Positions 128-38,586 of a DNA stretch of 38,868 nt are shown in pieces (within the stretch, counting starts at the first letter, position 1; every line of letters starts with the position of its first letter). The notes under the pieces were generated by a model, which did not search any database, was not told the origin of the DNA, and saw nothing but the letters and a program-made list of their open reading frames with translations. The translations under genes were made by a program, and so were the position numbers. This DNA comes from a virus: IMG/VR virus record IMGVR_UViG_3300045994_000163, positions 1 through 38,868 of that record; one strand, 5' to 3'.

Positions 128-319
128 ATGAAATTTACACTTAAAACTTTGTTAGTTTTCTTTTTTATTATTAGTGTTGCTATTGTTGGATATGGTAGAA
201 ATATCTATAAATTAGCACATTGTGATTTTGCTTCTCCTTATAAATGTGAAGTTGTACATGCTGTAGGTATCATTCCTATTGTTGGGGCTTTTACTGGCTA
301 TATGGATTTCGGTCAATAA
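128..319 (+). CDS. Small conserved phage membrane protein
   Basis: This 63-residue protein has one hydrophobic N-terminal segment (about residues 7-22, rich in L, V, F and I), which could be a membrane anchor or a signal sequence. A short Cys-containing part follows (KLAHCDFASPYKCEVVHAVG). The C-DF-PYK-EV-H-VG pattern is familiar from small uncharacterised T4-like phage proteins. I chose ATG 128 because a strong GGAGG lies at 118-122; a longer reading from 29 would run inside the clamp gene. It begins one base after the clamp stop codon. Function unknown. Confidence 0.75.
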   Translation: MKFTLKTLLVFFFIISVAIVGYGRNIYKLAHCDFASPYKCEVVHAVGIIPIVGAFTGYMDFGQ

Positions 320-326
320 AGATTAT

Positions 327-8427: not shown

Positions 8428-8608
8428 AATTATATATGAATATGGTGGAGAAATAAAATATTATCTTGATGGAGATAATTCTAGAACTTATATGTTAAGA
8501 GATCTAGAATTACTTCAAATCAAAATGCAGAATCAGTATAGAGTTGACAAAGATGATTTAATGTGGTATAATGAATTTCAACAAAAATGTGAGGTAATAA
8601 ATGGCTAA
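8411..8608 (+). CDS. Small hypothetical protein
   Basis: A 65-residue hydrophilic protein with a helical, charged middle (LRDLELLQIKMQNQYRVDKD). I recognise no family. I chose ATG 8411, which has GGAG at 8395-8398; a TTG at 8393 is possible. It overlaps the methyltransferase by 17 bp and the next gene by 8 bp. A perfect consensus promoter (8544-8572) lies within it. Confidence 0.6.
   Translation: MSYQNKIIYEYGGEIKYYLDGDNSRTYMLRDLELLQIKMQNQYRVDKDDLMWYNEFQQKCEVING
8544..8572 (+). promoter_or_regulatory. Perfect consensus sigma-70 promoter inside a gene
   Basis: TTGACA (8544-8549), a 17-bp spacer and TATAAT (8567-8572) are a full consensus match. Transcription would start around 8579, just before the gene at 8601 and then DNA polymerase 43A. 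It lies inside the coding region 8411-8608. Confidence 0.75.
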
Positions 8609-8960
8609 TATTAAAATGTTAAGACTCTCCACTGGAGAGAATGTATTGTGTGAAATTGTATCAGAACATCATGATGATGGAGTATTCTCTAATTCTTCTG
8701 ATTGTGTTTATTCTGATCATATTAAAGTTTCAAATGCGGTTGAATTAAGTATTGTCCCAAATCCACAAGATAGACAACAAATGTCTTATGGGTTTCTTCC
8801 ATTCCCACAATATGCAGCACCTAAATCTAAAGATTTGGTTACTATTCTAGTACGACATATTGTATTCTGTTTAGAACCAGATGTCCAATTTCTAGAACAA
8901 TATAATGCAATTTTCAATAAGATTCTTGTTCCAGAATCTAGAATTATTCTAGGAAAATGA
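8601..8960 (+). CDS. Conserved phage protein, possibly Sm-like fold
   Basis: A 119-residue protein. The start IKMLRLSTGENVLCEIVSE, the middle FLPFPQYAAPKSKDLVTILV and the end LEQYNAIFNKILVPESRIIL follow a pattern common in small T4-like phage proteins: KxxRLxTGExxxxE, a Pro-rich strand, then an EQYNxxF...P ending. An Sm-like beta fold has been suggested for such proteins, but no function is established that I know of. ATG 8601 has GAGG at 8591-8594. It is the first gene downstream of the promoter at 8544 and overlaps DNA polymerase by 4 bp (ATGA). Confidence 0.75.
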   Translation: MANIKMLRLSTGENVLCEIVSEHHDDGVFSNSSDCVYSDHIKVSNAVELSIVPNPQDRQQMSYGFLPFPQYAAPKSKDLVTILVRHIVFCLEPDVQFLEQYNAIFNKILVPESRIILGK

Positions 8961-10426: not shown

Positions 10427-10538
10427 TGTATAAAAATTATTCTGATAAAGAATTACTGGAATTAAAATATAAATTAGAGGGGAATATATCTAAATATAAT
10501 AATGCTCAAATGGCGGCAAAAATTGCTATGAATTCGCT
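10426..10538 (+). CDS. 43B: DNA polymerase C-terminal half (gp43B), exon 1
   Basis: This is the first exon of the second polymerase polypeptide; joined to 10798-11788 it gives 367 residues. ATG 10426 overlaps the gp43A stop (TTATGATG) and has a strong AGAGGA (10415-10420) at good spacing; ATG 10423 in the same frame is too close to it. The peptide reads MYKNYSDKELLELK, then NNAQMAAKIAMNSL, the helix leading into motif B. The frame is -1 relative to gp43A. It ends in CT, the first two bases of the Leu codon that the intron interrupts; reading on into the intron gives GAC TAA, a stop. gp43A plus gp43B is 856 residues, near T4 gp43 (898). Confidence 0.85.
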
Positions 10539-10797
10539 AGACTAATATGGTGCTTTTATTGGTAACAATAATCGAATAACTCTGTGAATTTGGTGGAACT
10601 CCAGACCGGACAATACCAAGCCAAGCCTAATATGGGAAGGTTTAACGACTATTCGTGGAAACGAAGTACACTCAAGTGAGTGGAAGCTCAGAGGTTCCTA
10701 TAATTTAGGAATATGATATAGTCTGATCTTTATGGGAACATAAAGCTGTCTATCTATAGACGGGATAGAATTCACGAATCTATCTGAACATAATATG
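10539..10797 (+). ncRNA. Group I intron in DNA polymerase motif B (no ORF)
   Basis: A 259-nt self-splicing-type intron. Removing it joins ...AAT TCG CT with A TAT GGA GCA, restoring NSLYGALGN. The 5' exon ends in T and the intron ends in G, as expected. The guide ATATGGTG (10545-10552) pairs GGTG with exon CGCT (P1, including the U-G at the site) and ATAT with the 3' exon ATAT (P10). P7 is GACTAT (10647-10652)/ATAGTC (10718-10723), P8 is TTCGT-GGAA-ACGAA (10652-10665), P9 is CTTTATG-GGAA-CATAAAG, followed by a GTCTA/TAGAC hairpin. It carries no endonuclease gene. Confidence 0.9.
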
Positions 10798-11788
10798 ATA
10801 TGGAGCACTCGGAAATGCACATTTTAGATATTTTAAATTAGAAAATGCTAGAGCAATTACCTTAACTGGTCAGTATATTATTAAATCTATGGATTATTGG
10901 ATTAATTTTGAATTAAATAATATGTTTAATAAAAATAAAGTTGAACAAAATCAATGGGTTACGTATCAAGATACTGACTCCTGCTATATTACATTAAATC
11001 CTGTAGTAGAGAGATTTTATAAAGAAAAAACTGATGATGAAATTGTAAATTTATTAGATACAATATGTAAAGAGAAATTAATGCCAATCATTAATAAACA
11101 TTGTGTAGCATTAGAAGATTATACTAATAATTTTAGAAAGACTATTATATTTGAACGAGAATCTATTTTTTCTTCAGGAATATTTTTAGCGAAGAAGCGT
11201 TATTTTATGAATGTTCTTGATAATGAGGGGGTTAGATATGCTACACCTAAACTAAAAGTTATGGGTTTAGAAGTTGTTAAATCATCTACTCCTGGAGTTA
11301 TTAGGAAAACTTTAAAGGCTGCATTGAGTATTATCTTAGATGAAGGTGAGGAGAAGATTCATGAATATATTGCAAAATGTCAATCTGAGTTTTCTAAATT
11401 TTCAATAGAAGAAATTTCATTTCCTAGAGGTGTTAATGGCTTAAGTAAATATAATGATTCGGTTACTATATATTCTAAAGGAACTCCAATCCATACTAAA
11501 GGTTCTTTATTATATAATAATAAACTGCGAGAACTTGGATTAGAAAACAAATATCCATTAATAGGTGAAGGAGACAAAATAAAATATACATATCTGAGAG
11601 AACCAAATCCAATAAAAAATACGGTAATATCATATCCTACAGAATTACCAGTAGAATTCGGTTTACATAAATACGTAGATTTTAATATGCAATTTGAAAA
11701 ATCGTTTTTAGCACCACTTAGAAATATTCTGGATGCTATAGGATGGAAAACCGAAAAATCAACATCAATCGAAGACTTTTTTAACTAA
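10798..11788 (+). CDS. 43B: DNA polymerase C-terminal half (gp43B), exon 2
   Basis: The second exon starts with the last base of the split Leu codon. It reads YGALGNAHFRYFKLENARAI (motif B continued) and YQDTDSCYI (motif C; both catalytic Asp, residues 96 and 98 of gp43B). The thumb region and a C-terminal KFGL-like tail follow, ending in SIEDFFN, which resembles the clamp-binding tail of T4 gp43. With motif A supplied by gp43A, the two chains must associate to form an active site. ATG 10889 could start translation internally, but that would lose motif B. The stop shares one base with the next gene's ATG. Confidence 0.9.
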
Positions 11789-12150
11789 TGGAAAATATAA
11801 TGACAAGCGAAACTGAATGTGTAAATGATTGTGACAAAATTGAAAATTTCTCTGTATTTAATAGCCCAACAGTAGCTATTACTTTGTTGAAACATGAATG
11901 TGTAGATAATGGTGTAATGTATAATGTTTGTCTTGATTATATTTTATCAGATGATCCATTACAAGTGATTTCTACTACTACAGATTTATATTCTAATTAC
12001 CCATTAGAACTTATCGTAGAAGCATCTGCACTTGGATCTATATATAATAATTTGTTGGATATTGTTAGAGTTATTGATCTAGAAACTGGCAAAGAAGTAT
12101 CTGATGAAGTCTATTCTCTTGATGAAGTTCTTGAAGATTGGGAACTTTAA
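11788..12150 (+). CDS. Hypothetical acidic phage protein
   Basis: A 120-residue acidic protein starting at the ATG that shares one base with the polymerase stop (TAATG). The sequence NSPTVAITLLKHECVDNGVM and a C-terminus rich in Asp and Glu suggest a small beta/alpha protein. I recognise no family. An alternative start lies at residue 5. Tight coupling to gp43B suggests it belongs to the replication unit. A hairpin follows the stop. Confidence 0.65.
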   Translation: MENIMTSETECVNDCDKIENFSVFNSPTVAITLLKHECVDNGVMYNVCLDYILSDDPLQVISTTTDLYSNYPLELIVEASALGSIYNNLLDIVRVIDLETGKEVSDEVYSLDEVLEDWEL

Positions 12151-12165
12151 TCTATATTTAATTAT

Positions 12166-12197
12166 GTCTAAGCTATATTATTTTGTATAGCTTAGAC
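12166..12197 (+). repeat. 12-bp stem-loop after the polymerase unit
   Basis: GTCTAAGCTATA (12166-12177) and TATAGCTTAGAC (12186-12197) form a perfect stem with an 8-nt loop. No U-run follows, so it is more likely a 3'-end stabiliser or processing site than a strong intrinsic terminator. Confidence 0.65.
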
Positions 12198-12208
12198 CAT
12201 ATAGTTTA

Positions 12209-12216
12209 TATAAATA
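12209..12216 (+). promoter_or_regulatory. T4-type late promoter ahead of the homing endonuclease
   Basis: TATAAATA is an exact late -10 match, 65 bp upstream of the endonuclease start. Transcription would begin near 12222, right at the hairpin 12221-12240. Confidence 0.65.
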
Positions 12217-12220
12217 TCTT

Positions 12221-12240
12221 AGTCAGAGTGGGATCTGACT
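12221..12240 (+). promoter_or_regulatory. 5'-terminal mRNA hairpin of the endonuclease transcript
   Basis: AGTCAGA (12221-12227) and TCTGACT (12234-12240) form a 7-bp stem with loop GTGGGA. Given the late promoter at 12209, this hairpin would lie at the extreme 5' end of the late transcript. It may stabilise the mRNA. Confidence 0.5.
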
Positions 12241-12281
12241 CTTAAATATGATAAACCTAAAAGAAATTAAAGGAGAACTAT

Positions 12282-13286
12282 ATGGTAACTACTCAACAGA
12301 TAGAAAATTTATTTTATTCTGAGACAGATAATAAATATAAATTAATGTTAAAAACTCATTGGGAAACTGGTATACATTATCTATGTATAACTAAACGAAA
12401 AAATTTTAGAAAATATACTGGATCTGGTGTTAGATGGAAGATTTTATTAAAATCCCATCCATCACCTGTATTCACTTGTTTGTTATTTTCATCTGATGAT
12501 ATAGATGAATTTAATGCTATATGTATAGAACATAATAATTTATTTAATATACCAAATAACCAAAATTTTGCTAATTTAGTCCCTGAATATGGGTATACTG
12601 GAAATCAAGGAAATCTTCCTATGTGGTGGGAGACTGCATCTGATATAGATAAAGATATAACTAGAAAAAAGATAACGACATCTAGAAAAGTAACTTGTTT
12701 AGAAAAGTATGGTAAATCTCATGTTATGGATATAGCTAGACTTGGATTACTCGATTATTATATAAAACATAATGTGAAATCTGCTATGCATATACCGGAA
12801 GTAGCAGAGAAATGTAAGCTTTCTAGAGAATCTACGATGATGGAAAAGTATGGGGTTATTAATAATATGCAAGTACCAGAGATATCAAATAGATGTAGAA
12901 TTTCTAGGGAAGCAACTATGATGGAAAAGTATGGGGTTGTACATTCTTTACAAATTCCTGGATTGGGTAAAAAAGTAAAAATTTCTAGAGAAGCTACGAT
13001 GATGGAAAAATATGGGGTTCCAAATGCATCATTAGTACCTGAAATTGCCGCTAAACGAGGTCTTAAAATATCAGAAACATTTAAGAATAAATCAAACGTA
13101 AAATGTGAATTTTGTGATCATGAATCGAAAAGTGTATTAAATCATCAAAATTATTGTAAATATAATCCAAATAAACTTATTAGACAAAAATATGAATGTC
13201 CAAATTGCGGAGGATTTTTTGATAAATTAAATCTAAACAGGTGGCATCTAGATAACTGTAAATCATTAACTAAAGGTATATTATGA
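12282..13286 (+). CDS. SegE-like GIY-YIG homing endonuclease with repeats and zinc fingers
   Basis: The protein is 334 residues. The N-terminal part (THWETGIHYLCITKRKNFRK, YTGSGVRWKILLKSH, then NQNFANLVPEYGYTGN) matches the SegE-type GIY-YIG nuclease pattern. The middle has four copies of a DNA-binding repeat: CLEKYGKSHVMDIARLG, then three with TMMEKYGV (at 210-217, 236-243 and 262-269 approximately), each followed by P-E or P-G and S-R-E. The C-terminus has two Cys/His clusters, CEFC...H..YC and CPNCGGFF...HLDNC, likely zinc fingers. Such proteins cut DNA at alleles lacking the gene. It starts behind AAGGAG under a late promoter and overlaps uvsX by 4 bp. Confidence 0.85.
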   Translation: MVTTQQIENLFYSETDNKYKLMLKTHWETGIHYLCITKRKNFRKYTGSGVRWKILLKSHPSPVFTCLLFSSDDIDEFNAICIEHNNLFNIPNNQNFANLVPEYGYTGNQGNLPMWWETASDIDKDITRKKITTSRKVTCLEKYGKSHVMDIARLGLLDYYIKHNVKSAMHIPEVAEKCKLSRESTMMEKYGVINNMQVPEISNRCRISREATMMEKYGVVHSLQIPGLGKKVKISREATMMEKYGVPNASLVPEIAAKRGLKISETFKNKSNVKCEFCDHESKSVLNHQNYCKYNPNKLIRQKYECPNCGGFFDKLNLNRWHLDNCKSLTKGIL

Positions 13287-23401: not shown

Positions 23402-24167
23402 TATTTTAGTTTTAGGTCATACTGGATTATTAGGCGATTGTGTTGTAAAATATTTCAATAGTAATGGAATTAGTGTTCAAGTTATAAATTTTAGATACCC
23501 ATCAATTGAATTTTTTAACTCTATAAAATCTTTTTCTGGTATAGTTATAAATTGTATAGCAGAATTACATGATGAAAGTAAATTTAATATTAATTATGAT
23601 TTACCTACATTTTTACATAATAATTTTAAATTAATACATCCATGTTCAGATGCAGTATATTCTGGTAATATATTGCCAGAATATACATATAATAAATTTT
23701 CAATAATAAACCCATCAAATTATTATGGAGAAAGTAAAGCTAAGTTTTTTTCGAATATTAATAATCCTTCTAATGTTAGAGTGATTAGAAGTTCTATTAT
23801 AGGATTCGATAAACATAATACTTCACTTTTATCTTGGTTTTTATCGTCAAAAAACGAATGTGCTGGATATTCAAATTATTTTTGGAATGGTATAACTGCT
23901 CTTGAATGGGCAAAGTGTAGTTTTAATTTATGTTTAAATTTTAATACTACCCCATTATTAACTATGCTTTCTTCAGACTTAATAATTTCAAAATATGATT
24001 TACTTAATATTTTTAAATTAGTCTATAAAAAGCCTATAAATATTATACAATCTACTATTAAAGATACAAAAAATTATTCCATTGAATCTGATATAAAATT
24101 AGATTCGATATATAACCAATTACTTTCTTATAATTTACTATACACTAACCCACAATTAATATTATGA
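23382..24167 (+). CDS. RmlD-like NAD(P)-dependent sugar reductase/epimerase
   Basis: A 261-residue SDR. ILVLGHTGLLGDCVVKYF is a G-x-x-G-x-x-G Rossmann motif of the RmlD type, VINCIAELHDES gives the second sheet, and SNYYGESKA holds the catalytic Y-x-x-x-K. It likely reduces the 4-keto group of a nucleotide sugar, completing the pathway started by the dehydratase upstream. It starts 20 bp inside the end of that gene. The C-terminal substrate-binding part is divergent. Confidence 0.8.
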   Translation: MITLDNDILVLGHTGLLGDCVVKYFNSNGISVQVINFRYPSIEFFNSIKSFSGIVINCIAELHDESKFNINYDLPTFLHNNFKLIHPCSDAVYSGNILPEYTYNKFSIINPSNYYGESKAKFFSNINNPSNVRVIRSSIIGFDKHNTSLLSWFLSSKNECAGYSNYFWNGITALEWAKCSFNLCLNFNTTPLLTMLSSDLIISKYDLLNIFKLVYKKPINIIQSTIKDTKNYSIESDIKLDSIYNQLLSYNLLYTNPQLIL

Positions 24168-24799
24168 TCAGTTATTCTCAAAATTCGTTAGATATAAAAT
24201 TACTAGAATATGTTAACTATAAAAATGGAGTTTTTGTAGAATGTGGGGCTAATGATGGTATTACTGCTTCCAATTCATATTTATTTGAAACCACTCTGAA
24301 CTGGTCTGGGTTATTAGTTGAACCTACTTTTGAAAATTATATTAAATGTAAAGAATTAAGATCGAATTCTATAGTTGAAAATTATGCTTTAGTTAGTTTT
24401 GATTATGAAAAACACAATTCTACTATATCTGGGGATTTTATTTATTCTGAAGATAATGTTAATGGGCTAATGTCTGGAATATCTGGAGTCGAGAAGTATT
24501 ATCAACCAACTATAGAATCTAAAAATATAAAAGTTCCTTGCATATCATTACATAATTTAATACTTAAACACAATATCAAATCTATAGATTTGTTTAGTCT
24601 TGATGTCGAAGGTTATGAACTTGAAGTATTAAATGGAGTTGATTTTTCTTATATCAGACCAAAATATATTTTAATAGAAACTGCAAATATATTAAAATAT
24701 CAAGAACTTATTAGAACTTTTATGGAAACTAAAAATTATGTATTCTTAACACAGCTTTCTGGTAATGATGATTTATTTGTAGATTCATTTTTAATTTAA
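24164..24799 (+). CDS. FkbM-family methyltransferase
   Basis: A 211-residue protein. GVFVECGANDGITASNSYLF is the FkbM-type SAM motif, LNWSGLLVEPTFENY follows, and KSIDLFSLDVEGYELEVLNG is the family's signature. FkbM enzymes are usually O-methyltransferases acting on sugars or polyketides; in phages they are common in glycan clusters. It overlaps the previous stop by 4 bp (ATGA). Confidence 0.92.
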   Translation: MISYSQNSLDIKLLEYVNYKNGVFVECGANDGITASNSYLFETTLNWSGLLVEPTFENYIKCKELRSNSIVENYALVSFDYEKHNSTISGDFIYSEDNVNGLMSGISGVEKYYQPTIESKNIKVPCISLHNLILKHNIKSIDLFSLDVEGYELEVLNGVDFSYIRPKYILIETANILKYQELIRTFMETKNYVFLTQLSGNDDLFVDSFLI

Positions 24800-24811
24800 A
24801 GGTATAATATA

Positions 24812-25735
24812 ATGAAAATATTAGTAACAGGTGGTTCTGGTTTTATTGGTTCACATTTATGTGCAAAATTGCTTGATCAAGGGCATTTTGTAATTTGTGT
24901 TGATAATTGTTTTAGTAGTGATAAATCAAATATTAATAATTTACTTGATAATAAAAATTTTGAATTTATTCGCCATGATGTAACTTTTCCATTATATCTT
25001 GAAGTAGATCAAATTTATAATTTGGCGTGTCCTGCTTCCCCAATACATTATCAAAAAGATCCAATACAAACAACTAAAACGTCTGTTCTTGGGGCGATTA
25101 ATATGTTAGGATTAGCTAAGAGGTTGGGTGTTCGAATACTACAAACGTCTACCTCTGAGGTGTATGGAGATCCTTTAATACACCCTCAAATTGAATCGTA
25201 TTGGGGTAATGTTAACCCTATTGGTATTAGGAGTTGTTATGATGAAGGAAAGAGAGTTGCAGAAACCCTATTTTTTGATTATCATAGACAACATAATGTT
25301 GATATTAGAATAGCTAGAATTTTTAATACATATGGTCCTAATATGCACCCCAATGATGGTAGGGTGGTTTCTAATTTTATTATGCAAGCATTACAGGATA
25401 GAGATATAACTATATATGGCGATGGAAACCAAACTAGAAGTTTTCAATATATAGATGATTTAATATCTGGATTAATATCCTTAATGAATTCGGATGAAGT
25501 TGGGCCAATAAATCTAGGAAATCCTAATGAATTTACTATATCTGAATTGGCAAATAAAGTAATACAATTAGTTGGTAGTAAGTCAATTATAATATATAAA
25601 GACCTCCCCTTAGATGACCCAAAACAGCGTAAACCAGATATATCATTAGCTAAAACTAAACTAGGTTGGTATCCGCATATTCAATTAGATTCTGGGTTAA
25701 AATCTACAATTGAATATTTTAAAACCCAATTGTAA
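24812..25735 (+). CDS. UDP-glucuronate decarboxylase-like (UDP-xylose synthase)
   Basis: A 307-residue extended SDR. The start [20 protein letters not shown] is followed by the diagnostic [56 protein letters not shown] (Y143-x-x-x-K147) and [20 protein letters not shown]. This is the pattern of UDP-glucuronic acid decarboxylase, which makes UDP-xylose. The enzyme would feed a pentose donor to the glycosyltransferases of the cluster. A late promoter follows it, so it marks the end of the glycan block. Confidence 0.92.
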
Positions 25736-25740
25736 TTTTA

Positions 25741-25748
25741 TATAAATA
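25741..25748 (+). promoter_or_regulatory. T4-type late promoter
   Basis: TATAAATA, an exact late -10 match, lies 34 bp upstream of the small gene at 25782 and just after the glycan cluster. It marks the switch from metabolic to virion-type genes. Confidence 0.75.
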
Positions 25749-25781
25749 CTTAATATAACTCTTTCATATTAGGTATTTACT

Positions 25782-26003
25782 ATGTTTTCTAACAATAAAG
25801 TTTCTCCATCTATTTTAGCTGCGATTAATACTATCTTTAATGAGGATATGGAATATGTAGCTGTTCATAAACCATCCGGTAAGGTTTCGTTTGTTGGTAA
25901 AACTAAACAAGACAGGGATGGTTATATCACAAAACATGGTTCAAGTCATGAACCAAAGAAAACTACTCCTAATAGTAAGAAAGTTGGAGATACTTGGATT
26001 TAA
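25782..26003 (+). CDS. Small conserved late phage protein
   Basis: A 73-residue basic protein. MFSNNKVSPSILAAINTIFN resembles the start of small virion-region proteins in T4-like phages (KVSPxVxxAVxxI). The second half, VAVHKPSGKVSFVGKTKQDR, is strand-like and rich in Lys. It lies behind a late promoter. Function unknown; a structural or assembly role is inferred from position only. Confidence 0.65.
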   Translation: MFSNNKVSPSILAAINTIFNEDMEYVAVHKPSGKVSFVGKTKQDRDGYITKHGSSHEPKKTTPNSKKVGDTWI

Positions 26004-26004
26004 T

Positions 26005-26760
26005 ATGCAAAATAATCAAGCTTTATTTATATTAGGATCTCCTGGTTCTGGTAAAGATGTAGTAATTAGAGATATAACATCAAACTATAATATAGTTGAA
26101 TTTACTTCTGTGCAGATAGATGAAATGTTATCTAATAATGATTCTTTTGTTAGAGCCAAATCAGATAAACGTAATGCTCTATTAAATACTGAATCTATAA
26201 TAGTTACTGCCAATACATTTGATTTAAATTTCATAGTAACTAAACATGTATTAGAATCTATTGGTTATACCTCACATTTAATTATTGTAGAAGCAGATTT
26301 ATCTACCTCATACGATAGATTACAAAATAGGAATAATTTAAGAGAATCCTTAAATAGAATATCTATAGGTAATTCAAATAAAAATTCTATCATTTCAGAA
26401 TTTAATTCTTATGTTATAGTTAATAATTCAAAATATTTAGATTTAACAGAATCTAGGAATTATATTTCAGATATTTTATCTGATTTAAAGTTTAATAGTA
26501 CATTATCATTAGAAGATATTGTAAAACCAAAATTAAAATCAAGATTTCGGTATAAATCAAAAACTGTTCCAGATCAATCTGAAAATGGTATAGTTGGTAC
26601 TATAATGTTTACTGGTGTTGAATCTATTGATGAACCATCATTTGAAACTAATTTGTTTGGTTCTTCACCACAACAAAATGATAAGATAGATAGACAAAAC
26701 GTTTTAAGTAAAACTAAAAAGATATTATTTAAGAAAAGGATAATTCCAAATGGCATCTAA
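26005..26760 (+). CDS. P-loop kinase/NTPase in the late region
   Basis: A 251-residue protein. QALFILGSPGSGKDVVIRDI contains Walker A (GSPGSGKD, 11-18) as in small kinases and zeta-toxin-like proteins. LIIVEADLSTSYDRLQNRNN then fits the LID/base-binding part with Arg residues. The C-terminal third is low-complexity and basic. It might phosphorylate a small substrate or a protein; no substrate can be inferred. I chose ATG 26005, two bases after the previous stop. Confidence 0.75.
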   Translation: MQNNQALFILGSPGSGKDVVIRDITSNYNIVEFTSVQIDEMLSNNDSFVRAKSDKRNALLNTESIIVTANTFDLNFIVTKHVLESIGYTSHLIIVEADLSTSYDRLQNRNNLRESLNRISIGNSNKNSIISEFNSYVIVNNSKYLDLTESRNYISDILSDLKFNSTLSLEDIVKPKLKSRFRYKSKTVPDQSENGIVGTIMFTGVESIDEPSFETNLFGSSPQQNDKIDRQNVLSKTKKILFKKRIIPNGI

Positions 26761-27133
26761 TATAACCGATCCAATAACAGCAAGTTTTAAATTTTCGCAT
26801 GGTTTGGGAAGATATAGTAAGGAGATGAACCCTAATACTAAAAGAGAAATAGAGAAAGCACAACGAAAGAAAGCAGAACTAACGGGAACTGATTCTGACG
26901 CTGATGTTGGTAGTTCTGAAATTAGTGCTTTAAATGCTAAAAAGTTTACTGATAATATAGTTAAAGTTAAACAATCAGTACTCAATAAACCATTTAAACC
27001 AAAACCATATAAACCAGCTATTGTTCCTCCACCAGTTGTTCCTATAATTAATACTCAACATCCAACAAATCCACAACAGAATAGTAATTTTTTTCAAACA
27101 CATGCAAATAAATTTAAACGTCCAAAATTCTAA
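26750..27133 (+). CDS. Hypothetical proline-rich late protein
   Basis: A 127-residue basic protein starting 11 bp inside the previous gene. The N-terminal half is charged and helical (PNTKREIEKAQRKKAELTG). The C-terminal half is Pro, Lys and Asn-rich (KPFKPKPYKPAIVPPPVVP) and likely disordered. I recognise no family. It sits between the kinase-like gene and the HicA-domain gene, in the same transcription unit. Confidence 0.6.
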   Translation: MASNITDPITASFKFSHGLGRYSKEMNPNTKREIEKAQRKKAELTGTDSDADVGSSEISALNAKKFTDNIVKVKQSVLNKPFKPKPYKPAIVPPPVVPIINTQHPTNPQQNSNFFQTHANKFKRPKF

Positions 27134-27145
27134 AGGAATATTATT

Positions 27146-27916
27146 ATGGATTTATTAGGTATAAAAAAGTTATATAATGAACGAACATTAACTAAACAGG
27201 AATTGAAAAAGCGAGAAGAAATTGCTAAAGCTATAGAAAAAGAACATCCAGATATGGATATGGGCAAAAAACTGGCTATTGCTACTTCTAGTGCAGAAAA
27301 CTGTTGTAAAGAAGATATTCTTGATGAAGTTTCTAACTATGATGCTGTAGTTACCTATTACAGAGATCAATTGCATTTAGATCCATATAAGTTACGTGGT
27401 GAAGTTGGTAAACAATTACGTGATAAGATTAAAAATTCACCAGCTTTTCATGCTTGGATGAAAATTAATAAATATGAATCTACTGATATAATCTCTGATG
27501 ATCAATTAGATGAAGTTGTTGGTGCTGGTTGGAATACCAAAACTATGCACAAACATTTAATCTCAAATGGTTGGAAATCTACTGGACCATCTGGTAGCCA
27601 TAATAATTATTCACACCCAGAATCATCTAGTATCATATCTGTCCCAAGACATGCTAAAGATATAAATAGAATAACTGCTATGAAAATGTTAAAGCAAGTT
27701 GTGGATCTTGACAAAAAGGGTGTAGTTAATAAATCTTGTGATGCAGCTAATGAAAATGTTTCTGTACTTACTATGAATATTTTAGAAAAAATAAAAGAAG
27801 TTAAACAGAAATCAACTAAACCATCAGAAGAAGTAATATTCTTTGGGACAGGTCAGGATAAAAAATCTGGAAAATCGTCAGCTACTCCAGATTATGATAA
27901 TAATACCAGTTGTTAA
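27146..27916 (+). CDS. Late protein with embedded HicA-like domain
   Basis: A 256-residue protein. The N-terminus (TKQELKKREEIAKAIEKEHP, then DMGKKLAIATSSA) matches a motif common in phage virion proteins: K-REEI-x-A-x(5)-P-x-M-x(3)-A-x-AIAT. Residues about 128-188 match HicA: WNTKTMHKHLISNGWK, GPSGSHNNYSHPES, SIISVPRHAKDINRI and MLKQV, with the G-S-H containing the catalytic-type His (H152). HicA toxins cleave mRNA and are paired with HicB; no HicB is seen here. Residues about 190-256 are Lys, Ser and Gln-rich. The domain could bind RNA or DNA rather than act as a toxin. Confidence 0.75.
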   Translation: MDLLGIKKLYNERTLTKQELKKREEIAKAIEKEHPDMDMGKKLAIATSSAENCCKEDILDEVSNYDAVVTYYRDQLHLDPYKLRGEVGKQLRDKIKNSPAFHAWMKINKYESTDIISDDQLDEVVGAGWNTKTMHKHLISNGWKSTGPSGSHNNYSHPESSSIISVPRHAKDINRITAMKMLKQVVDLDKKGVVNKSCDAANENVSVLTMNILEKIKEVKQKSTKPSEEVIFFGTGQDKKSGKSSATPDYDNNTSC

Positions 27917-27934
27917 TCAATATAATATATTTTA

Positions 27935-27942
27935 TATAAATA
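27935..27942 (+). promoter_or_regulatory. T4-type late promoter
   Basis: TATAAATA, an exact late -10 match, in the 62-bp gap before the virion-type gene at 27979. Confidence 0.75.
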
Positions 27943-27978
27943 CTAATATATAATAAATTTAATTAAAGGAATAATAAA

Positions 27979-28311
27979 ATGTCAGAATGGAAAGCTACAG
28001 ATACAAATGGATATGCAAACACTAAACCTAAGTGGATTCAAGTTGGTAATGGTCAAGGTGGTATAGAATCTGCTAGAGCAAATGCACAATTAGCTAATAC
28101 TGTTTTAGTTACATCTTCTAGAAAAGCTAATGCTAATACGTCTGCTATTACGTCTGCGTATGGTCAAAGAGGAATTTCTCATACTGGTTGGGTAACATTT
28201 AAAACTGGTACTGGTGGTAGAGCTGGTAGAGTTACATCTGAAGTTTTAGTTGCACTATCTTCTCCAGTTGGTACTGGTAATAATGCTAATCCATTTTTTA
28301 CTGGAGTATAA
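27979..28311 (+). CDS. Probable virion structural protein
   Basis: A 110-residue protein starting behind AAAGGAAT. ISHTGWVTFKTGTGGRAGRV and TSEVLVAL resemble the conserved H-x-GWV-x(2)-T-GTGGRAGRV-x(2)-E-x-LVA pattern I recall from T4-like and related phage structural proteins. The remainder is small, polar and beta-prone. It is the first gene behind a late promoter, which fits a high-level virion protein. The exact structure it belongs to cannot be read. Confidence 0.7.
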   Translation: MSEWKATDTNGYANTKPKWIQVGNGQGGIESARANAQLANTVLVTSSRKANANTSAITSAYGQRGISHTGWVTFKTGTGGRAGRVTSEVLVALSSPVGTGNNANPFFTGV

Positions 28312-28314
28312 ATT

Positions 28315-28689
28315 TTGTTAAAAAGTTTTAAAACTTTTATAGCAGAACAAGTGCCTGTAGTCACAATAGATACTACAGGTACTGATGTTACTATACCAGA
28401 AATTAAAAATGAATTAAATAAAAATATAGATTTAATTCTAAGACAACAATATCAAAGTGTTGAAGAAGCTGCAAATAAAGTTAGAAAAATTCTCTCTATG
28501 TATAATTTAGATTTACCACAAATTGATTGTGATGATACTAAACAGGGTTCTTTAAAAATGACTGTTGGTTATCAACATAAAGTTTATGATGAAATTAAAG
28601 GCGAATTGCAACCAGTAGTACCATTAATATTTGCTTTTAATTATCAATTAATAAATGGTTTATATAAAGTTTCTGGTGAACTATTATAA
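28315..28689 (+). CDS. Hypothetical late protein with TTG start
   Basis: A 124-residue protein starting at TTG 28315, since no in-frame ATG fits. The opening LKSFKTFIAEQ is typical of small late proteins in these phages (K-x-F-x-x-F-x-x-E). The rest has a helical segment (NLILRQQYQS-like) and strand-rich C-terminus (VVPLIFAFNYQLINGLYKVS). I recognise no family. It ends in TAATG, sharing a base with the next start. Confidence 0.6.
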   Translation: MLKSFKTFIAEQVPVVTIDTTGTDVTIPEIKNELNKNIDLILRQQYQSVEEAANKVRKILSMYNLDLPQIDCDDTKQGSLKMTVGYQHKVYDEIKGELQPVVPLIFAFNYQLINGLYKVSGELL

Positions 28690-29075
28690 TGGATAATTTA
28701 ACCAATGAAAATTATTTGTTGGTTGCAGCAAAGCAATATTGGTCTATACACTATACCGATTTAGAATTTTATAGTGATTTAAAACGAGTATTCTCAATAA
28801 AAAAATTAATTAATAAATATATTAATTCTGAAGTTTTATCTGATAGATTAATTTTAAATCATATTATTTTATTATTTAATGCTTTTGAATCTAATATTTT
28901 TGTAGTAAAAATGTTATTTTTAAAATTAGATATTCAGCATTACAGCGCAATAAAAACTTTTTTGGTGTATTTAGATAATATGCCAGATATCATAAAAATA
29001 AATGATGTGAAAATAATAATATCTTCGGATATATTAATTGATATGACTATAGCAAATAGATTGAGGGTATTATGA
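28689..29075 (+). CDS. Conserved phage hypothetical protein (DUF7207-like)
   Basis: A 128-residue helical protein. YLLVAAKQYWSIHYTDLEFY, SDLKRVFSIKKLINKYI, SDRLILNHIILLFNAF and FLVYLDNMPDII match a pattern common in T4-like phages: AAKxY, x-DLKRxxxIKRL, LxxRLILNHIIxLxNxF and FLxYL. The family name is from memory. No function is known. Gene order near virion genes is typical for it. It overlaps the next gene by 4 bp. Confidence 0.75.
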   Translation: MDNLTNENYLLVAAKQYWSIHYTDLEFYSDLKRVFSIKKLINKYINSEVLSDRLILNHIILLFNAFESNIFVVKMLFLKLDIQHYSAIKTFLVYLDNMPDIIKINDVKIIISSDILIDMTIANRLRVL

Positions 29076-29710
29076 TTAAGGAAGATGGTGTACCTACTAA
29101 TGTCACTGGAGCAGCAATAGCTGGTACTACGGCACAAAGTTTACCTGGAGTTTCCGTTAAAGACATGAAGTCTAGAAAAACTCCAAAATTATTAACAAGA
29201 AACTTATCTGCGTGTATGCAGCCAAAAAATTTATTTACTAAGGAGTCTAATAATATGGCAACAAAAACATATTCTTCGTTTATTATTGGATTAGATGAAG
29301 CAGCAAAACCAAAAGTTGCACCAGCAGCTACAAATAACAAAGATGATATTTCTAATTCGGTTGCTTCAGAATTATTTGCTAGATGTAGAGCAGCTGCAAC
29401 AACTACACATTTCGCACATTTGAGTACGGATTCATATTCTGAACATAAAGCTTTAGATACTTTTTATACAGATATTATAGATGAAATTGATGCCTTTTGT
29501 GAAGCCTATATTGGTCTATATGGTAAATTTATTACTTTACCACCAATTGTACCACAAATGCAAGAAGGTGAACCAGCTATAGAAGAATTGCGTGATTGGG
29601 TATTACAAAATAGATCTTTGATTACCGATGATACATCATTACAAAATGCTATAGATGATATTGTTACTTTATGTAATAGTACCATATATAAATTACAAAA
29701 ATTGAAATAA
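29072..29710 (+). CDS. DUF5856-like phage protein with possible dual start
   Basis: A 212-residue frame in two parts. Residues 1-61 (GVPTNVTGAAIAGTTAQSLP ...) resemble a separate small late protein. From residue 62 (ATG 29255) a strong AAGGAG (29240-29245) precedes MATKTYSSFIIG, and the second part has LFARCRAAATTTHFAHLSTD, SYSEHKALDTFYTDI and CEAYIGLYGKF, a ferritin-like or DUF5856-type pattern. Both starts may be used, giving 212- and 151-residue products. Alternatively two genes were fused by loss of a stop. It starts in the previous gene's stop region. Confidence 0.75.
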   Translation: MIKEDGVPTNVTGAAIAGTTAQSLPGVSVKDMKSRKTPKLLTRNLSACMQPKNLFTKESNNMATKTYSSFIIGLDEAAKPKVAPAATNNKDDISNSVASELFARCRAAATTTHFAHLSTDSYSEHKALDTFYTDIIDEIDAFCEAYIGLYGKFITLPPIVPQMQEGEPAIEELRDWVLQNRSLITDDTSLQNAIDDIVTLCNSTIYKLQKLK

Positions 29711-29714
29711 TATC

Positions 29715-30161
29715 ATGAAAATTTCAGATAATGGAGTATCTTTAATTGCATTAGCAGAAGGTATTAAGCTTTCTGCATATAAATGCCAAGCAGGAGTTGT
29801 TACCATTGGAATTGGTACTACTAAAATAGATGGTAAATCTATAAAAATGGGAACAACTTGTACACAAGAACAGGCATATAGTTATCTAAATGATTTCATA
29901 GAAAATGAAATCTACCCAACATTAGATGAATATGTTAAATCAGACTTAACACAAAATCAATTTGATGCTCTCTGTTCATTTATTTATAATATTGGAACTC
30001 CGCAATTTATAACATCTACATTATTAAAAATGCTTAATATTAGTAATTTTAAAGGGGCATCTGACCAATTCATGAGGTGGGATAAAGTTAATGGTAAACC
30101 AAACAAAGGATTATTAAATAGAAGGAAATTAGAAAAGCAATTATTTGATAAGGAAGTTTAA
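29715..30161 (+). CDS. Phage lysozyme (GH24 endolysin)
   Basis: A 148-residue muramidase that would cleave the peptidoglycan glycan strands at lysis. LAEGIKLSAYKC has the catalytic Glu (E15), and GVVTIGIGTT holds the conserved Thr (T30). The third triad position, usually D or C, is C24 here, as in several P21-like enzymes. LTQNQFDALCSFIYNIGTP and a KGLLNRRKLEKQLF-like ending are typical. No signal peptide or SAR helix is visible, so it would need a holin. Confidence 0.92.
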   Translation: MKISDNGVSLIALAEGIKLSAYKCQAGVVTIGIGTTKIDGKSIKMGTTCTQEQAYSYLNDFIENEIYPTLDEYVKSDLTQNQFDALCSFIYNIGTPQFITSTLLKMLNISNFKGASDQFMRWDKVNGKPNKGLLNRRKLEKQLFDKEV

Positions 30162-30162
30162 T

Positions 30163-30435
30163 ATGAAAACATTTACTACAAGACAATCAGATGATATAAA
30201 CTCTATGGAGTATTTAAATAGAGCATTATTTAATGTTAGAACCGATCCAGAATTTAGAAAAAATAGCTCTAAATATAATTCTAAATTAAAATCATTAAAA
30301 GAAAATAATAGTGGATGTATTGATAAATTGAAGTGCTTAAATATATTAACTAAATTAGAAAATTATTCGACAGAATTAGATACTCATTTAAATTTATTTT
30401 CACAATTAGATAATATCAAGGAACGATATGACTGA
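30163..30435 (+). CDS. Small hypothetical protein after the lysozyme
   Basis: A 90-residue, highly charged helical protein (KNSSKYNSKLKSLKENNSGC, then a Leu-rich C-terminal helix). It has AAGGAA upstream of ATG 30163 and starts one base after the lysozyme stop. It overlaps the next gene by 8 bp. I recognise no family. Position next to lysozyme hints at a lysis-related role, with no motif to support it. Confidence 0.6.
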   Translation: MKTFTTRQSDDINSMEYLNRALFNVRTDPEFRKNSSKYNSKLKSLKENNSGCIDKLKCLNILTKLENYSTELDTHLNLFSQLDNIKERYD

Positions 30436-30868
30436 ATATTCAAGATCAGAAGATTTTATTAGTATGAAATTAGAGATTGAATTAATAAAAAAAGATATAT
30501 ATTTCATTAATACATTAATCGAACGCTTGGATCTTTTTATGACTAAGATTCAAGACCAACAAGATATAATATTAGAAAAAACTAACATTATAATTGAATC
30601 TAAAGCAAAATTAACTGCTGATGATTTATCAGATTTAAGTCTTGCTTTAGATAAAACTAAAACCATACTTAATGATAAAATATTTATTTTAGAGAAATCT
30701 ATATTAGAAGAAGTTTCTGATGTAAAAAGTGATTTAATGTCTCATGTTGCAAATGATAATTCTTTAGTACGTAAATATAATAGAATTATTTACGTTTCTG
30801 GAGCTATTTTAGCTATTGTTGTATGGGGGTTTAATAATTTAGATTTTGTTAAATTCTTAATAAAATAA
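30428..30868 (+). CDS. Coiled-coil protein with C-terminal membrane helix
   Basis: A 146-residue protein. The first 110 residues are a long charged helix or coiled coil (LEKTNIIIESKAKLTADDLS, then LDKTKTILNDKIFILEKSIL). Residues about 120-137 (IIYVSGAILAIVVWGF) are a single membrane helix, with NNLDFVKFLIK at the end. This layout fits tail-anchored phage proteins next to lysozyme, such as a holin-like or DUF7201-type protein; the role is inferred only. It is the last gene before the gp61 promoter. Confidence 0.65.
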   Translation: MTEYSRSEDFISMKLEIELIKKDIYFINTLIERLDLFMTKIQDQQDIILEKTNIIIESKAKLTADDLSDLSLALDKTKTILNDKIFILEKSILEEVSDVKSDLMSHVANDNSLVRKYNRIIYVSGAILAIVVWGFNNLDFVKFLIK

Positions 30869-30871
30869 TGC

Positions 30872-30900
30872 TTTACTTTTATGGATTTTTATGATATAAT
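30872..30900 (+). promoter_or_regulatory. Sigma-70-like promoter for gp61
   Basis: TTTACT (30872-30877), a 17-bp spacer and TATAAT (30895-30900). It lies 35 bp upstream of the primase gene and directly precedes an 11-bp inverted repeat overlapping the expected start site (about 30907). Confidence 0.7.
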
Positions 30901-30930
30901 AGGAGTTTGATTAAACTTTATCAGGCTCCT
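30901..30930 (+). repeat. 11-bp inverted repeat at the gp61 transcription start
   Basis: AGGAGTTTGAT (30901-30911) pairs with ATCAGGCTCCT (30920-30930), with two G-T pairs and an 8-nt loop. It starts immediately after the -10 box and ends 4 nt before the primase ATG. It could be a repressor operator or an RNA hairpin blocking ribosome binding. Confidence 0.6.
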
Positions 30931-30934
30931 AATT

Positions 30935-31954
30935 ATGTCAATTTGGATAGACAGAAAATTCCTCTTATTACTTTCACCAAAACTAGAACAATTCAAACGA
31001 AAATCTGATAATTTATATAACTTCAGATGTCCTTATTGTAATGATTCTCAAAAAATTAAAACCAAAACTCGCGGTTACGTTTATTCTAGTAAAAACAATT
31101 ATTTCTTTACTTGCCACAATTGCTCTAAGAATACAACCCTTAGATCTTTAATAGATCTATTAGACCCATTCCTAGCTAAAGAATATTCCCTAGAAAATTT
31201 TCAAGAGAATTCTTCGCATATACCTATAAAATCTACAGAATCTTTATATAAAGATCTGCAGAAAATTAACTCTAATACTATTGTTAAAAAATGTGTATTA
31301 GATCTACCAACAATCAAATCTTTATCAAAAACTCATATAGCTAAAGAATATCTTTTAAATAGAAAAATACCAGAATCTAAATTTGATGATTTATATTATG
31401 CTGAAGATTTTAGAGCTTTTGTATCAACAGTATCCGATAAAATATTACCATCTACATCAGCTAGAATAGTAATCCCGTTTATATCTAAAAATGGTACTCT
31501 AAAAGCTATACAAGGTAGAGCTATAGATAAAAATGATCCTATGCGATACATTACTATTACAATAGATAAAACTACTGATAAACTATTTGGTGTAGATAAA
31601 ATTGATATATCAAAACCAATAAAAGTGGTTGAAGGGCCATTTTGTGCATTAAGTCTGACTAATGCAATTGCAACAGCAGATTCTAATTTATTAGCAGCAG
31701 AACGAAGTTTTTCATCTTCATCAAATTTAATATATATTTATGATAATGAACCCAGAAATATTCAAATTGTTAAATTGTTAAAAGCTGCTATTGATAAAGA
31801 TAAGGTTGTTGTTATTTGGCCCGAAACTTTTAAATTTAAAGACATAAATGAAGCTTTAATTAATGGGTTAGATATAGAATCTATTATATTTAGTTATACC
31901 TATTCTGGATTAAGAGCAAAATTAGAATTTATTAGATGGGCTAAAGTTAAATAA
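30935..31954 (+). CDS. 61: DNA primase, gp61-like
   Basis: The protein is 339 residues, matching T4 gp61 (342). It makes short RNA primers for the lagging strand together with gp41. The zinc-binding N-terminus has CPYCNDSQ and CHNCSKNT (about 32-67). The TOPRIM-like catalytic core has KVVEGPFCAL (the conserved E-G) and LIYIYDNEPR, with the D-x-E. RIVIPFISKNGTLKAIQGR is also family-typical. There is no clear ribosome binding site before ATG 30935, since the leader is the inverted repeat. Confidence 0.93.
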   Translation: MSIWIDRKFLLLLSPKLEQFKRKSDNLYNFRCPYCNDSQKIKTKTRGYVYSSKNNYFFTCHNCSKNTTLRSLIDLLDPFLAKEYSLENFQENSSHIPIKSTESLYKDLQKINSNTIVKKCVLDLPTIKSLSKTHIAKEYLLNRKIPESKFDDLYYAEDFRAFVSTVSDKILPSTSARIVIPFISKNGTLKAIQGRAIDKNDPMRYITITIDKTTDKLFGVDKIDISKPIKVVEGPFCALSLTNAIATADSNLLAAERSFSSSSNLIYIYDNEPRNIQIVKLLKAAIDKDKVVVIWPETFKFKDINEALINGLDIESIIFSYTYSGLRAKLEFIRWAKVK

Positions 31955-31999
31955 TAATATTTCATCGTTTTTTCTACAAAACTAAACAATTAAATTTAC

Positions 32000-32027
32000 T
32001 TGACTTATAGATTATCTATGGTATACT
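32000..32027 (+). promoter_or_regulatory. Candidate sigma-70-like promoter
   Basis: TTGACT (32000-32005), a 16-bp spacer and TATACT (32022-32027), in the 5' end of the tnpB remnant. It could drive the remnant and the small genes and thyX downstream. Confidence 0.45.
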
Positions 32028-32747
32028 ACTATTAGTAAAAATCCTAATGGTAAATATTTTGTTTCTTTTAGTTGTGAAGTTGATATAAAACCACTAGAAA
32101 AGACAGGAAAATCAATAGGTATTGATATTGGCATTAAAGATGTATTAGTGTCCAGTGATGTATATTATAGTGGAGCACCAAAATTTACTTATGTAAATGC
32201 TAGAAAACTTAAGAAAGAACAAAGAAAATTGAGCCGAAAAACCAAAGGTTCAAATAGTTACGAAAAACAGAGGATCAAAGTTGCAAAGGTTCATGCCCAT
32301 ATCGCGAATTGTAGAAAGGATTTTCTTCACAAAGAGACAACAAAAATAATAAAATCATATGATTTTATCTATATTGAAGATCTTAATGTAAAAGGAATGC
32401 TAAGGAATCGCAAGTTGAGCAAGGCTGTTGCTGATGTTGGTATCTTTGAATTAACTAGACAGCTAGAATATAAAGCTAATTGGTATCAAAAGAAAGTTGT
32501 TAAAATTTCAAGATGGTATCCAAGTACGCAATTATGTTCTAATTGTAATACTAGACACAAGATGTCTTTAGGTATCAGGGTGATGAAATGTGATTACTGT
32601 GGATTAAATCTCGATAGAGATTTGAATGCAGCGATCAACATAAAAGCTGCTGGGGAAGTAGTGTTAGCTGGTGGAGTCCCAAACCAACTTGTTAAAGCAG
32701 AGCTAAAGCTCTGTGGTGAACGAGGGGATGCTGAACCCAGAATGTGA
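32004..32747 (+). pseudogene. tnpB: 5'-truncated IS605-family tnpB remnant
   Basis: The frame is open from 32004 to the TGA at 32745-32747. It starts mid-protein at SKNPNGKYFVSFSCEVD, without ATG; a GTG at 32148 is the only later candidate. Preserved: RuvC-I SIGIDIGIKDVLVSSD, RuvC-II IYIEDLNVKGM, zinc ribbon CSNCNTRH...CDYCG and RuvC-III DRDLNAAINI, so D-E-D catalytic residues are all present. Missing is the N-terminal half, which binds the guide RNA and target. TnpB is an RNA-guided nuclease of IS200/IS605 transposons. G+C is above that of its neighbours, suggesting recent entry. Activity is unlikely without the N-terminus. Confidence 0.88.
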
Positions 32748-32749
32748 AA

Positions 32750-32778
32750 GAATTTAACTAGCTATATTAGTTAAATTC
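32750..32778 (+). mobile_element. IS605-type right-end hairpin
   Basis: GAATTTAACTA (32750-32760) and TAGTTAAATTC (32768-32778) form an 11-bp perfect stem with loop GCTATAT, 3 bp after the tnpB stop. Terminal hairpins of this kind are the TnpA recognition sites of IS200/IS605 elements. No matching left-end hairpin is visible upstream of 32004. Confidence 0.65.
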
Positions 32779-32846
32779 TAAGAGCTGATTCCAAATTATA
32801 TCAGTTAATTGAGAGCAAAATTTGAATTTTTACAGTGGAGAAAGAT

Positions 32847-33014
32847 ATGAAGAAAACTGAAAGTGTTAAATATGTAGTTATACCGAAACCCGAATATGAT
32901 GAACTTGTAGAAAGGTCTGATTGGTTAGCGTATTTAGAGGCTGCTGGTGTTGATAATTGGAGTGGGTATAGTAATGCTATGGATATGAAGGAATCAGACA
33001 GCCATGAGTCTTAA
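32847..33014 (+). CDS. Small hypothetical protein
   Basis: A 55-residue protein starting at ATG 32847 behind GGAGAAAG, an excellent ribosome binding site (32837-32841). It reads MKKTESVKYVVIPKPEYDEL, then a WLAYLEAAGVDNWSGYSNAM helix. No family recognised. It overlaps the next small frame by 11 bp. The good ribosome site and conserved-looking helix pattern argue that it is real. Confidence 0.65.
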   Translation: MKKTESVKYVVIPKPEYDELVERSDWLAYLEAAGVDNWSGYSNAMDMKESDSHES

Positions 33015-33150
33015 ATTCGAGTATATGGGTATTGAATGCTTAAGAGTTGATGGTATTTGGTTTGAATATATAAATTATGAATATATATTATCAGATCAAT
33101 CAATTAAATTAGAACAACTATATAAAGGTAAAGATGTAACTTTTAGATGA
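33004..33150 (+). CDS. Small hypothetical protein
   Basis: A 48-residue frame from ATG 33004 to TGA 33150, overlapping the previous gene by 11 bp. Sequence: MSLKFEYMGIECLRVDGIWF, then a strand-rich tail ending GKDVTFR. No family recognised, and no clear Shine-Dalgarno of its own; translation would depend on the upstream gene. The 111 bp after it (33151-33261) have no gene that I can support. Confidence 0.45.
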   Translation: MSLKFEYMGIECLRVDGIWFEYINYEYILSDQSIKLEQLYKGKDVTFR

Positions 33151-35523: not shown

Positions 35524-35735
35524 ATATTAATTGTGATACAAATATATTTGATCTTGCAGTATTATTAGATATACAAAAAGAAGAACTTAGGTTATTGAGA
35601 TCTGCAATTGCTTCTAGGGATATTCAATTGAATATAATAGAAAGATTAATTGATGATCCAGAATATGAACTATCTGGTGTAGATTATGATTATGAAACAA
35701 AGCTGATTAATAAAATACAAAAGTTAAGGAAATAA
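35517..35735 (+). CDS. Small helical protein between nrdB and nrdA (paralogue of 37436)
   Basis: A 72-residue protein. The part KEELRLLRSAIASRDIQLNI, then IERLIDDPEYELSGVDYDYE, shares 42 of 50 positions with the protein encoded at 37436-37690, on the other side of nrdA. So the gene was duplicated around nrdA. It is helical and charged; I know of no family function. It overlaps nrdB by 7 bp and ends one base before nrdA, so all three are probably co-translated. Confidence 0.8.
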   Translation: MVDINCDTNIFDLAVLLDIQKEELRLLRSAIASRDIQLNIIERLIDDPEYELSGVDYDYETKLINKIQKLRK

Positions 35736-37443: not shown

Positions 37444-37690
37444 GAGTGCTTTAGAAAAATTAAATATAGAAATGCAGTATTTATTAGATACTTTTGATAC
37501 TGCAATTCTTATAAAAAAACAAAAAGAAGAACTTAGACTTTTAAGATCTGCTATTGCATGTAGAGATATTCAACTAGGTATTATTGAAAGATTAATAGAT
37601 GATCCTAATTATGAAATGGCTGGTGCTGAGTATGATTATGAAACTAATCTTATTAATAAAATTCAGAAATTAAATGAACATTTTAAATAA
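37436..37690 (+). CDS. Small helical protein after nrdA (paralogue of 35517)
   Basis: An 84-residue protein. I chose ATG 37436, which overlaps the nrdA end by 8 bp; an earlier ATG at 37271 would lie far inside nrdA. The core KEELRLLRSAIACRDIQLGI, IERLIDDPNYEMAGAEYDYE is the second copy of the protein at 35517. The extra N-terminal part (VKSALEKLNIEMQYLLDTFD) is different. It overlaps the next small frame by 17 bp. Confidence 0.8.
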   Translation: MVKSALEKLNIEMQYLLDTFDTAILIKKQKEELRLLRSAIACRDIQLGIIERLIDDPNYEMAGAEYDYETNLINKIQKLNEHFK

Positions 37691-38160: not shown

Positions 38161-38586
38161 ATGTCATCTTGGATATTTGAAGGGAATCAAATAGAAGAAC
38201 TTCCTGATTGTGTCGGATACATTTATTGTATAACAAATTTAACTAACAATAGAAAATATTTGGGCAAGAAGCTTTCTCATTTTACCAAAACTTCTCTAAA
38301 AACTATTACATTAAAATCTGGCGTAAAAAAGAAAAAGAAAGTTAAATCCTATCCAGAATCTGACTGGAAAACCTATTATGGTTCTTGTTTAGAACTTCAG
38401 AATGATGTTAAATCTCTTGGTGAAGAAAATTTCTATAGAGAAATACTTTGTTTTTGTTATTCGAAAGGTCAACTTTCGTACAAAGAAGCAGAATTACAAT
38501 TTAAATATCAAGTATTATTATCTGATGAATATTATAACCGTATCATTTCATGTAGAATAAATGCTGCTCATTTAAAAATTATATAA
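38161..38586 (+). CDS. SegE-like GIY-YIG domain protein
   Basis: A 141-residue protein. GYIYCITNLTNNRKYLGKKL is the GIY-YIG start, SDWKTYYGSCLELQNDV and LGEENFYREILCFCYSKGQL give the catalytic Arg and helix, then YKEAELQFKYQVL includes the conserved Glu. This small family is very common in T4-like phages and is annotated as endonuclease-like. Some members may have housekeeping rather than homing roles, since they lack extra DNA-binding modules, as here. It starts two bases after the previous stop. Confidence 0.88.
   Translation: MSSWIFEGNQIEELPDCVGYIYCITNLTNNRKYLGKKLSHFTKTSLKTITLKSGVKKKKKVKSYPESDWKTYYGSCLELQNDVKSLGEENFYREILCFCYSKGQLSYKEAELQFKYQVLLSDEYYNRIISCRINAAHLKII

What the first reader, a model, noticed from the sequence alone, without database searches (positions are those of the whole stretch)
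32004..32778. TnpB remnant that kept the RuvC triad but lost its N-terminal half
RuvC-I (GIDIGIKD), RuvC-II (IYIEDLN), the zinc ribbon and RuvC-III (DRDLNAA) are intact and in frame, and the 3' terminal hairpin survives, but the guide- and target-binding half and the start codon are gone. Recent decay normally brings stops or frameshifts; here 744 bp remain open. Either the truncation is very recent, or the fragment has a retained use. Known repressor-type TnpB relatives lose RuvC residues and keep the N-terminus, so this is the reverse.
Basis: partly seen in the sequence, partly recalled or inferred. Interest (0 to 1): 0.6.

Follow-up and report, generated by a model that had tools for sequence, protein, structure and literature searches.

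The report
TnpB fragment stranded at recombination hotspot
A phage carries the back half of an RNA-guided DNA-cutting gene (tnpB), most likely dead debris left where mobile elements and DNA exchange keep rewriting the end of the phage's primase gene; it is well explained and mostly ordinary.

Summary
In detail: window 32004-32747 is one open frame encoding the last ~240 residues of a TnpB, with RuvC D/E/D, zinc ribbon and 3' right end, and nothing N-terminal of the last WED strands. A retained nuclease is unlikely: the first canonical start (GTG, 32148) lies downstream of the RuvC-I Asp (32124), so no ordinary start gives the full triad.

The surroundings explain the truncation. The fragment sits between a complete primase gene (30935-31954) and a second, leftover copy of the primase 3' end (LRAKFEFLQWRKI*, 32809-32850), still joined to the downstream genes as in an uninterrupted relative (L024). 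The primase is mosaic: residues 1-200 match L024 at 98%, the last third at about 50%. A near-identical phage (L023, 99.8%) diverges at the same stop codon and carries a NUMOD3 homing-endonuclease-like gene there; 13 of its 17 differences from the window over 8.5 kb lie in the last ~350 bp before the junction (p=2e-15).

This is best read as a gene-conversion hotspot at the primase 3' end, with tnpB as truncated cargo. The open frame needs no selection at the divergences seen. No intron and no lost N-terminus were found; full-length relatives exist at 62-64% identity.

The parts
30935..31954 (+). Complete DNA primase gene (339 aa), mosaic: first ~208 codons as in L024, the rest from a divergent source
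   Evidence: PHROG_47 DNA primase 2.4e-66, PHROG_451 matched to its last position; protein identity to L024 196/200 over residues 1-200, falling to 13/40 near the C-terminus
31601..31955 (+). Tract with 13 of the 17 differences from the near-identical phage L023: footprint of gene conversion next to the cargo
   Evidence: 13/355 vs 4/8138 mismatches, Fisher p=2e-15
31955..32027 (.). ~70-bp stretch of unknown origin between the primase stop and the start of TnpB homology
   Evidence: No convincing match in window or relatives; no exact match to a 27-mer of it in IMG/VR
32004..32747 (+). 5'-truncated tnpB: end of WED, RuvC plus TNB zinc ribbon, C-terminal tail; start codon, REC and most of WED missing
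32148..32747 (+). Longest ORF with a canonical start inside the fragment (GTG, 199 aa); lacks the RuvC-I Asp
32750..32779 (+). Right-end hairpin (GAATTTAACTA...TAGTTAAATTC), part of the former omega-RNA
   Evidence: sequence; fold, and same position as in L003/L004
32780..32794 (+). Right-end terminus ...GATTCCAA; conservation among related elements in different flanks stops right after it, so a guide would start at 32795
32809..32850 (+). Second, leftover copy of the primase 3' end (LRAKFEFLQWRKI*), contiguous with downstream genes as in the empty-site relative; preceded by an in-frame TAA (32806-32808)
32826..33014 (+). Stop-to-stop frame of the T7 gp5.9-like RecBCD-inhibitor gene that follows the primase directly in L024
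   Evidence: PF25708 3.7e-19

Best explanation
A dead, 5'-truncated copy of a solo-tnpB element (IS200/IS605-type, no tnpA). It lies in a recombination and homing hotspot at the 3' end of the phage primase gene. Inferred history: a tnpB element sat at or just before the last ~13 codons of a primase gene. Recombination with another phage then brought in a complete, divergent primase C-terminal third, and its break fell inside tnpB. That removed the tnpB 5' half, any left end and the interrupted primase part, and left [complete primase] - [tnpB 3' half + right end] - [old primase tail] - [downstream genes]. Shown by sequence: the truncation, the right-end boundary, the duplicated tail, the mosaic primase, the clustered differences, the alternative cargo in a sister phage and the empty site in a relative. 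Inferred: the order of events, homing endonucleases (or formerly TnpB itself) as driver, and lack of function.
For: Duplicated primase tail flanking the fragment, and empty-site synteny in L024. Mosaic primase. L023/G001 is 99.8% identical over 23463-31955 and 99.98% over 7421-12463, then carries an antisense NUMOD3 ORF at the same point. 13 of 17 differences lie in the last ~350 bp, p=2e-15. Right end aligned to related elements in seven different flanks. No canonical start with the full triad. The genome carries other homing-type features: NUMOD4-HNH, SegE and a group I intron. HEGs next to essential phage genes and at boundaries of genetic exchange are described in PMC10448857.
Against: No phage with an intact tnpB at this primase site was found. 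The ~70 bp at 31955-32027 is unexplained. The old tail has an in-frame TAA just before it, so a clean insertion into a working primase is not directly shown. The target motif could not be read, because the left end is gone and related copies give different motifs. No reads were available to rule out a misassembly.
Confidence: 0.68

Rival explanations
1. Simple internal deletion: an intact tnpB lay between the complete primase and the old tail, and one deletion removed its 5' half, possibly together with a neighbouring homing gene as in L023, without recombination breaking it. The fragment is still dead debris.
For: Gives the same final map; L023 shows cargo directly at the primase stop.
Against: Does not by itself explain the 13 differences packed into the adjacent ~350 bp or the mosaic primase.
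Confidence: 0.15
2. Assembly chimera: the primase of one strain was joined to the tnpB 3' half and tail of another strain.
For: A strain-variable site: L023 diverges exactly here, and contigs G003 and G004 change or end near 33970 within the same block.
Against: No exact repeat of 16 bp or more near the junction apart from the primase-tail motif shared with L024; the junction sequence is unique.
Confidence: 0.1
3. Retained use: the RuvC-TNB half is expressed (non-canonical start, or GTG 32148) as a nuclease, RNA-binding or dominant-negative protein.
For: 247 codons open; catalytic and zinc residues intact in the DNA.
Against: The first canonical start loses the RuvC-I Asp. REC and most of WED, which read the TAM and hold omega-RNA and target in ISDra2 TnpB (PMC10097598), are missing. 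The chance of no stop is 0.46 at 1.85% divergence and 0.92 at 0.2%. The close relatives found are full-length, not this truncated form.
Confidence: 0.05
4. Intron- or IStron-like element: the primase is spliced onto the downstream tail and tnpB is the intron ORF.
For: The primase tail lies on both sides of tnpB.
Against: No group I intron is detected at 31900-32860, although the same search finds one in the DNA polymerase gene. The upstream primase is already complete, and the downstream tail has an in-frame TAA in front.
Confidence: 0.02

Closest known systems
TnpB of solo-tnpB, IS200/IS605-type elements (phage contigs L003 and L004, 64% and 62%; IMGVR 3300031834_000970, 3300045993_000458)
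   Same: RuvC triad, zinc ribbon, hairpin and GATTCCAA right end, no tnpA within the related elements whose ends could be read
   Different: Relatives are full length with an ATG and intact WED/REC; here the 5' half is missing
TldR nuclease-dead TnpB repressors (Wiegand et al. 2024, cited in PMC13418256)
   Same: TnpB-derived, phage-borne
   Different: TldRs keep guide- and DNA-binding and lose the nuclease; this is a C-terminal fragment without a proper start or guide-binding half
HEG-associated gene conversion next to essential phage genes (PMC10448857; PMC2988022)
   Same: Cargo at the end of an essential replication gene, divergent flanking tract, alternative cargo in a sister phage
   Different: Here the surviving cargo is a broken RNA-guided nuclease gene rather than a GIY-YIG/HNH HEG
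TnpB as gene drive of insertion sequences (PMC11870625)
   Same: A guide read from the insertion flank could have targeted element-free phages
   Different: Shown for plasmids with intact TnpB; not shown here

Membership tests
TnpB (IS200/IS605 RNA-guided nuclease) | RuvC D/E/D and TNB zinc ribbon | tested here: met
TnpB (IS200/IS605 RNA-guided nuclease) | N-terminal WED/REC half (TAM, omega-RNA and target binding) | tested here: not met
   Homology starts at residue 8-9; no N-terminal half found in the record
TnpB (IS200/IS605 RNA-guided nuclease) | Canonical start giving the whole protein | tested here: not met
   First start GTG 32148, past the RuvC-I Asp
TnpB (IS200/IS605 RNA-guided nuclease) | Right end / omega-RNA 3' end | tested here: met
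   Hairpin + GATTCCAA at 32750-32794
TnpB (IS200/IS605 RNA-guided nuclease) | Left end and target motif | tested here: inconclusive
   Left end absent; related copies give different motifs
TldR repressor | RuvC inactivated, N-terminal half kept | tested here: not met
   The reverse
IStron | Group I intron around tnpB | tested here: not met
   No match at 31900-32860
HEG-type gene-conversion locus | Divergent flanking tract and empty or alternative alleles at one site | tested here: met
HEG-type gene-conversion locus | Site-specific cleavage by the cargo nuclease | not testable with these tools
   Needs biochemistry

The most novel reading that the evidence does not exclude
The locus is the corpse of an RNA-guided homing element: an intact tnpB whose guide came from the old primase tail cut element-free phages at the primase 3' end and was copied in together with a recoded primase C-terminus that restored the gene, as HEGs do but with RNA-guided targeting.
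Probability: 0.1. Interest if true: 0.65.

Novelty: new member of a known kind. Interest (0 to 1): 0.27.

Why it matters
It shows how a catalytically intact-looking fragment can arise without selection: recombination at a homing hotspot restores the host gene and cuts the cargo gene in half. The pair of near-identical phages with different cargo (HEG-like gene against tnpB) at one primase site is a usable natural comparison for testing whether TnpB can home between co-infecting phages.

Tried and rejected
Search for the lost N-terminus in the window and related contigs: nothing. Group I intron or IStron: none at the locus. Other copies of the HEG-like gene of L023: only weak partial relatives, so the other end of that allele could not be read. 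Target motif from related elements: inconsistent among copies. dN/dS on the fragment: not attempted, since the nearest relatives (62-64% aa) split off too far back to speak about the time after truncation. Structure prediction was not run because it would not separate the rivals. A literature search for N-terminally truncated TnpB remnants found nothing.

Full report
Observation. Window 32004-32747 (+) is open for 247 codons while the other frames over the same stretch carry 9-32 stops. It encodes the C-terminal part of a TnpB: Pfam OrfB_IS605 and Cas12f1-like_TNB and PHROG_506 from profile position 156. The RuvC residues are at 32124 (D), 32376 (E) and 32613 (D), with two CxxC pairs at 32535 and 32589. 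The close relatives retrieved are nearly all full-length TnpBs of about 370-410 aa, best L003 and L004 at 64% and 62%; homology to the window begins at residue 8-9. In ISDra2 TnpB the WED domain is residues 1-12 and 117-176 with REC between them, and these hold the TAM and parts of the omega-RNA and target (PMC10097598). The window therefore lacks REC and most of WED.

Not a translatable triad. The first ATG/GTG/TTG in frame is GTG 32148, 24 bp downstream of the RuvC-I Asp codon; the next in-frame ATG is at 32397. Unless a rare start such as ATA 32007 or ATT 32031 is used, no product carries the full triad.

Right end. Related elements found by their right-end sequence lie in seven different flanks; they share everything up to ...GATTCCAA and nothing after it. 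In the window this places the right end at 32794, after the hairpin 32750-32779. A guide would have started at 32795, and from about nt 14 on it would have run into the primase-tail copy.

Surroundings. The upstream primase is complete and ends GLRAKLEFIRWAKVK*. Just past the tnpB right end, 32809-32850 reads LRAKFEFLQWRKI*. In relative L024 the primase ends GLRAKLEFLHWRKL* and is followed directly by the gp5.9-like gene and the 53-aa ORF. The window's downstream copy aligns with this L024 sequence from 32808 to 33132 at 83%. So the downstream tail is the old 3' end in its place, and the upstream complete primase C-terminus is the replacement. The primase is mosaic: 196 of the first 200 residues match L024, then the 40-residue blocks fall to 27, 22 and 13, and the last 22 columns hold 11 matches.

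Sister phage. L023 (contig of 25,042 bp) is 99.8% identical to the window over 23463-31955 with 17 differences, and 99.98% over 7421-12463. At 31955 it diverges into an antisense ORF with a NUMOD3 motif, a motif typical of homing endonucleases; the contig ends inside it. Thirteen of the 17 differences lie between 31612 and 31952: 13/355 against 4/8138, p=2e-15. Twelve of them fall in shared codons and nine of these are silent; the thirteenth changes the stop codon TAA to CAA. The two phages thus carry separately exchanged primase 3' tracts with different cargo. The record also holds NUMOD4-HNH and SegE genes and a group I intron, and HEGs are known to sit next to essential genes and to bound regions of exchange in phages (PMC10448857).

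Mechanism. Most likely a tnpB element sat at the primase 3' end in an ancestor or donor, and recombination that delivered a complete divergent primase C-terminus broke inside tnpB. Shown: truncation, boundaries, duplication, mosaicism, tract, alternative cargo, empty site. Inferred: order of events, driver nuclease, loss of function. A single later deletion is the main alternative within the same picture.

Open frame. At 0.2% divergence 0.08 stops are expected in 741 bp; at 1.85% (half of the tract divergence) 0.78, so a stop-free frame has probability 0.92 and 0.46; allowing frameshifts at an assumed tenth of the substitution rate gives 0.79 and 0.12. The frame is therefore no good evidence of selection. 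Among about 95 evaluable tnpB relatives, 4 had a short upstream frame and 5 a late-starting match, some of these at contig ends, so 5'-damaged tnpB genes are not rare.

Limits. The unexplained 70 bp, the in-frame TAA before the old tail, the lack of an intact donor, and the absence of reads remain open.

Verdict. Real, and well explained as debris at a recombination hotspot; interest low to moderate, mainly for the two-allele comparison and the untested idea of RNA-guided homing.

Noticed in passing
window 10534-10745: Group I intron (Rfam RF00028, 73.4 bits) in the family-B DNA polymerase gene at the KIAMNSL|YGAL motif; missed by the fast whole-window scan.
   Followed up: partly
window 8957-10426 and 10424-11788: DNA polymerase reading frame is split: the first ORF ends at a TGA overlapping an ATG that opens the next frame. 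The near-identical L023 contig has no difference there, so it is not a private error of this assembly.
   Followed up: partly
window 279-848; 12282-13286; 38161-38586: Homing-type genes: NUMOD4+HNH_3, a DUF7487 protein with repeated 'SREATMMEKYGV' units, and a SegE-like GIY-YIG ORF.
   Followed up: partly
L024 6302-8002: thyX of the relative carries a ~300-aa intein-like insert with a sub-threshold LAGLIDADG_3 match; the window's thyX has none and is a divergent allele.
   Followed up: no
window 33970: Two contigs of related phages (G003, G004) end or change at the same point within thyX, suggesting a second strain-variable boundary.
   Followed up: no
window 35573-35727 and 37519-37673: Two ~80% identical copies of a small ORF segment (EELRLLRSAIA.RDIQL.IIERLIDDP.YE) flank the nrdA gene; no Pfam match.
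   Followed up: no
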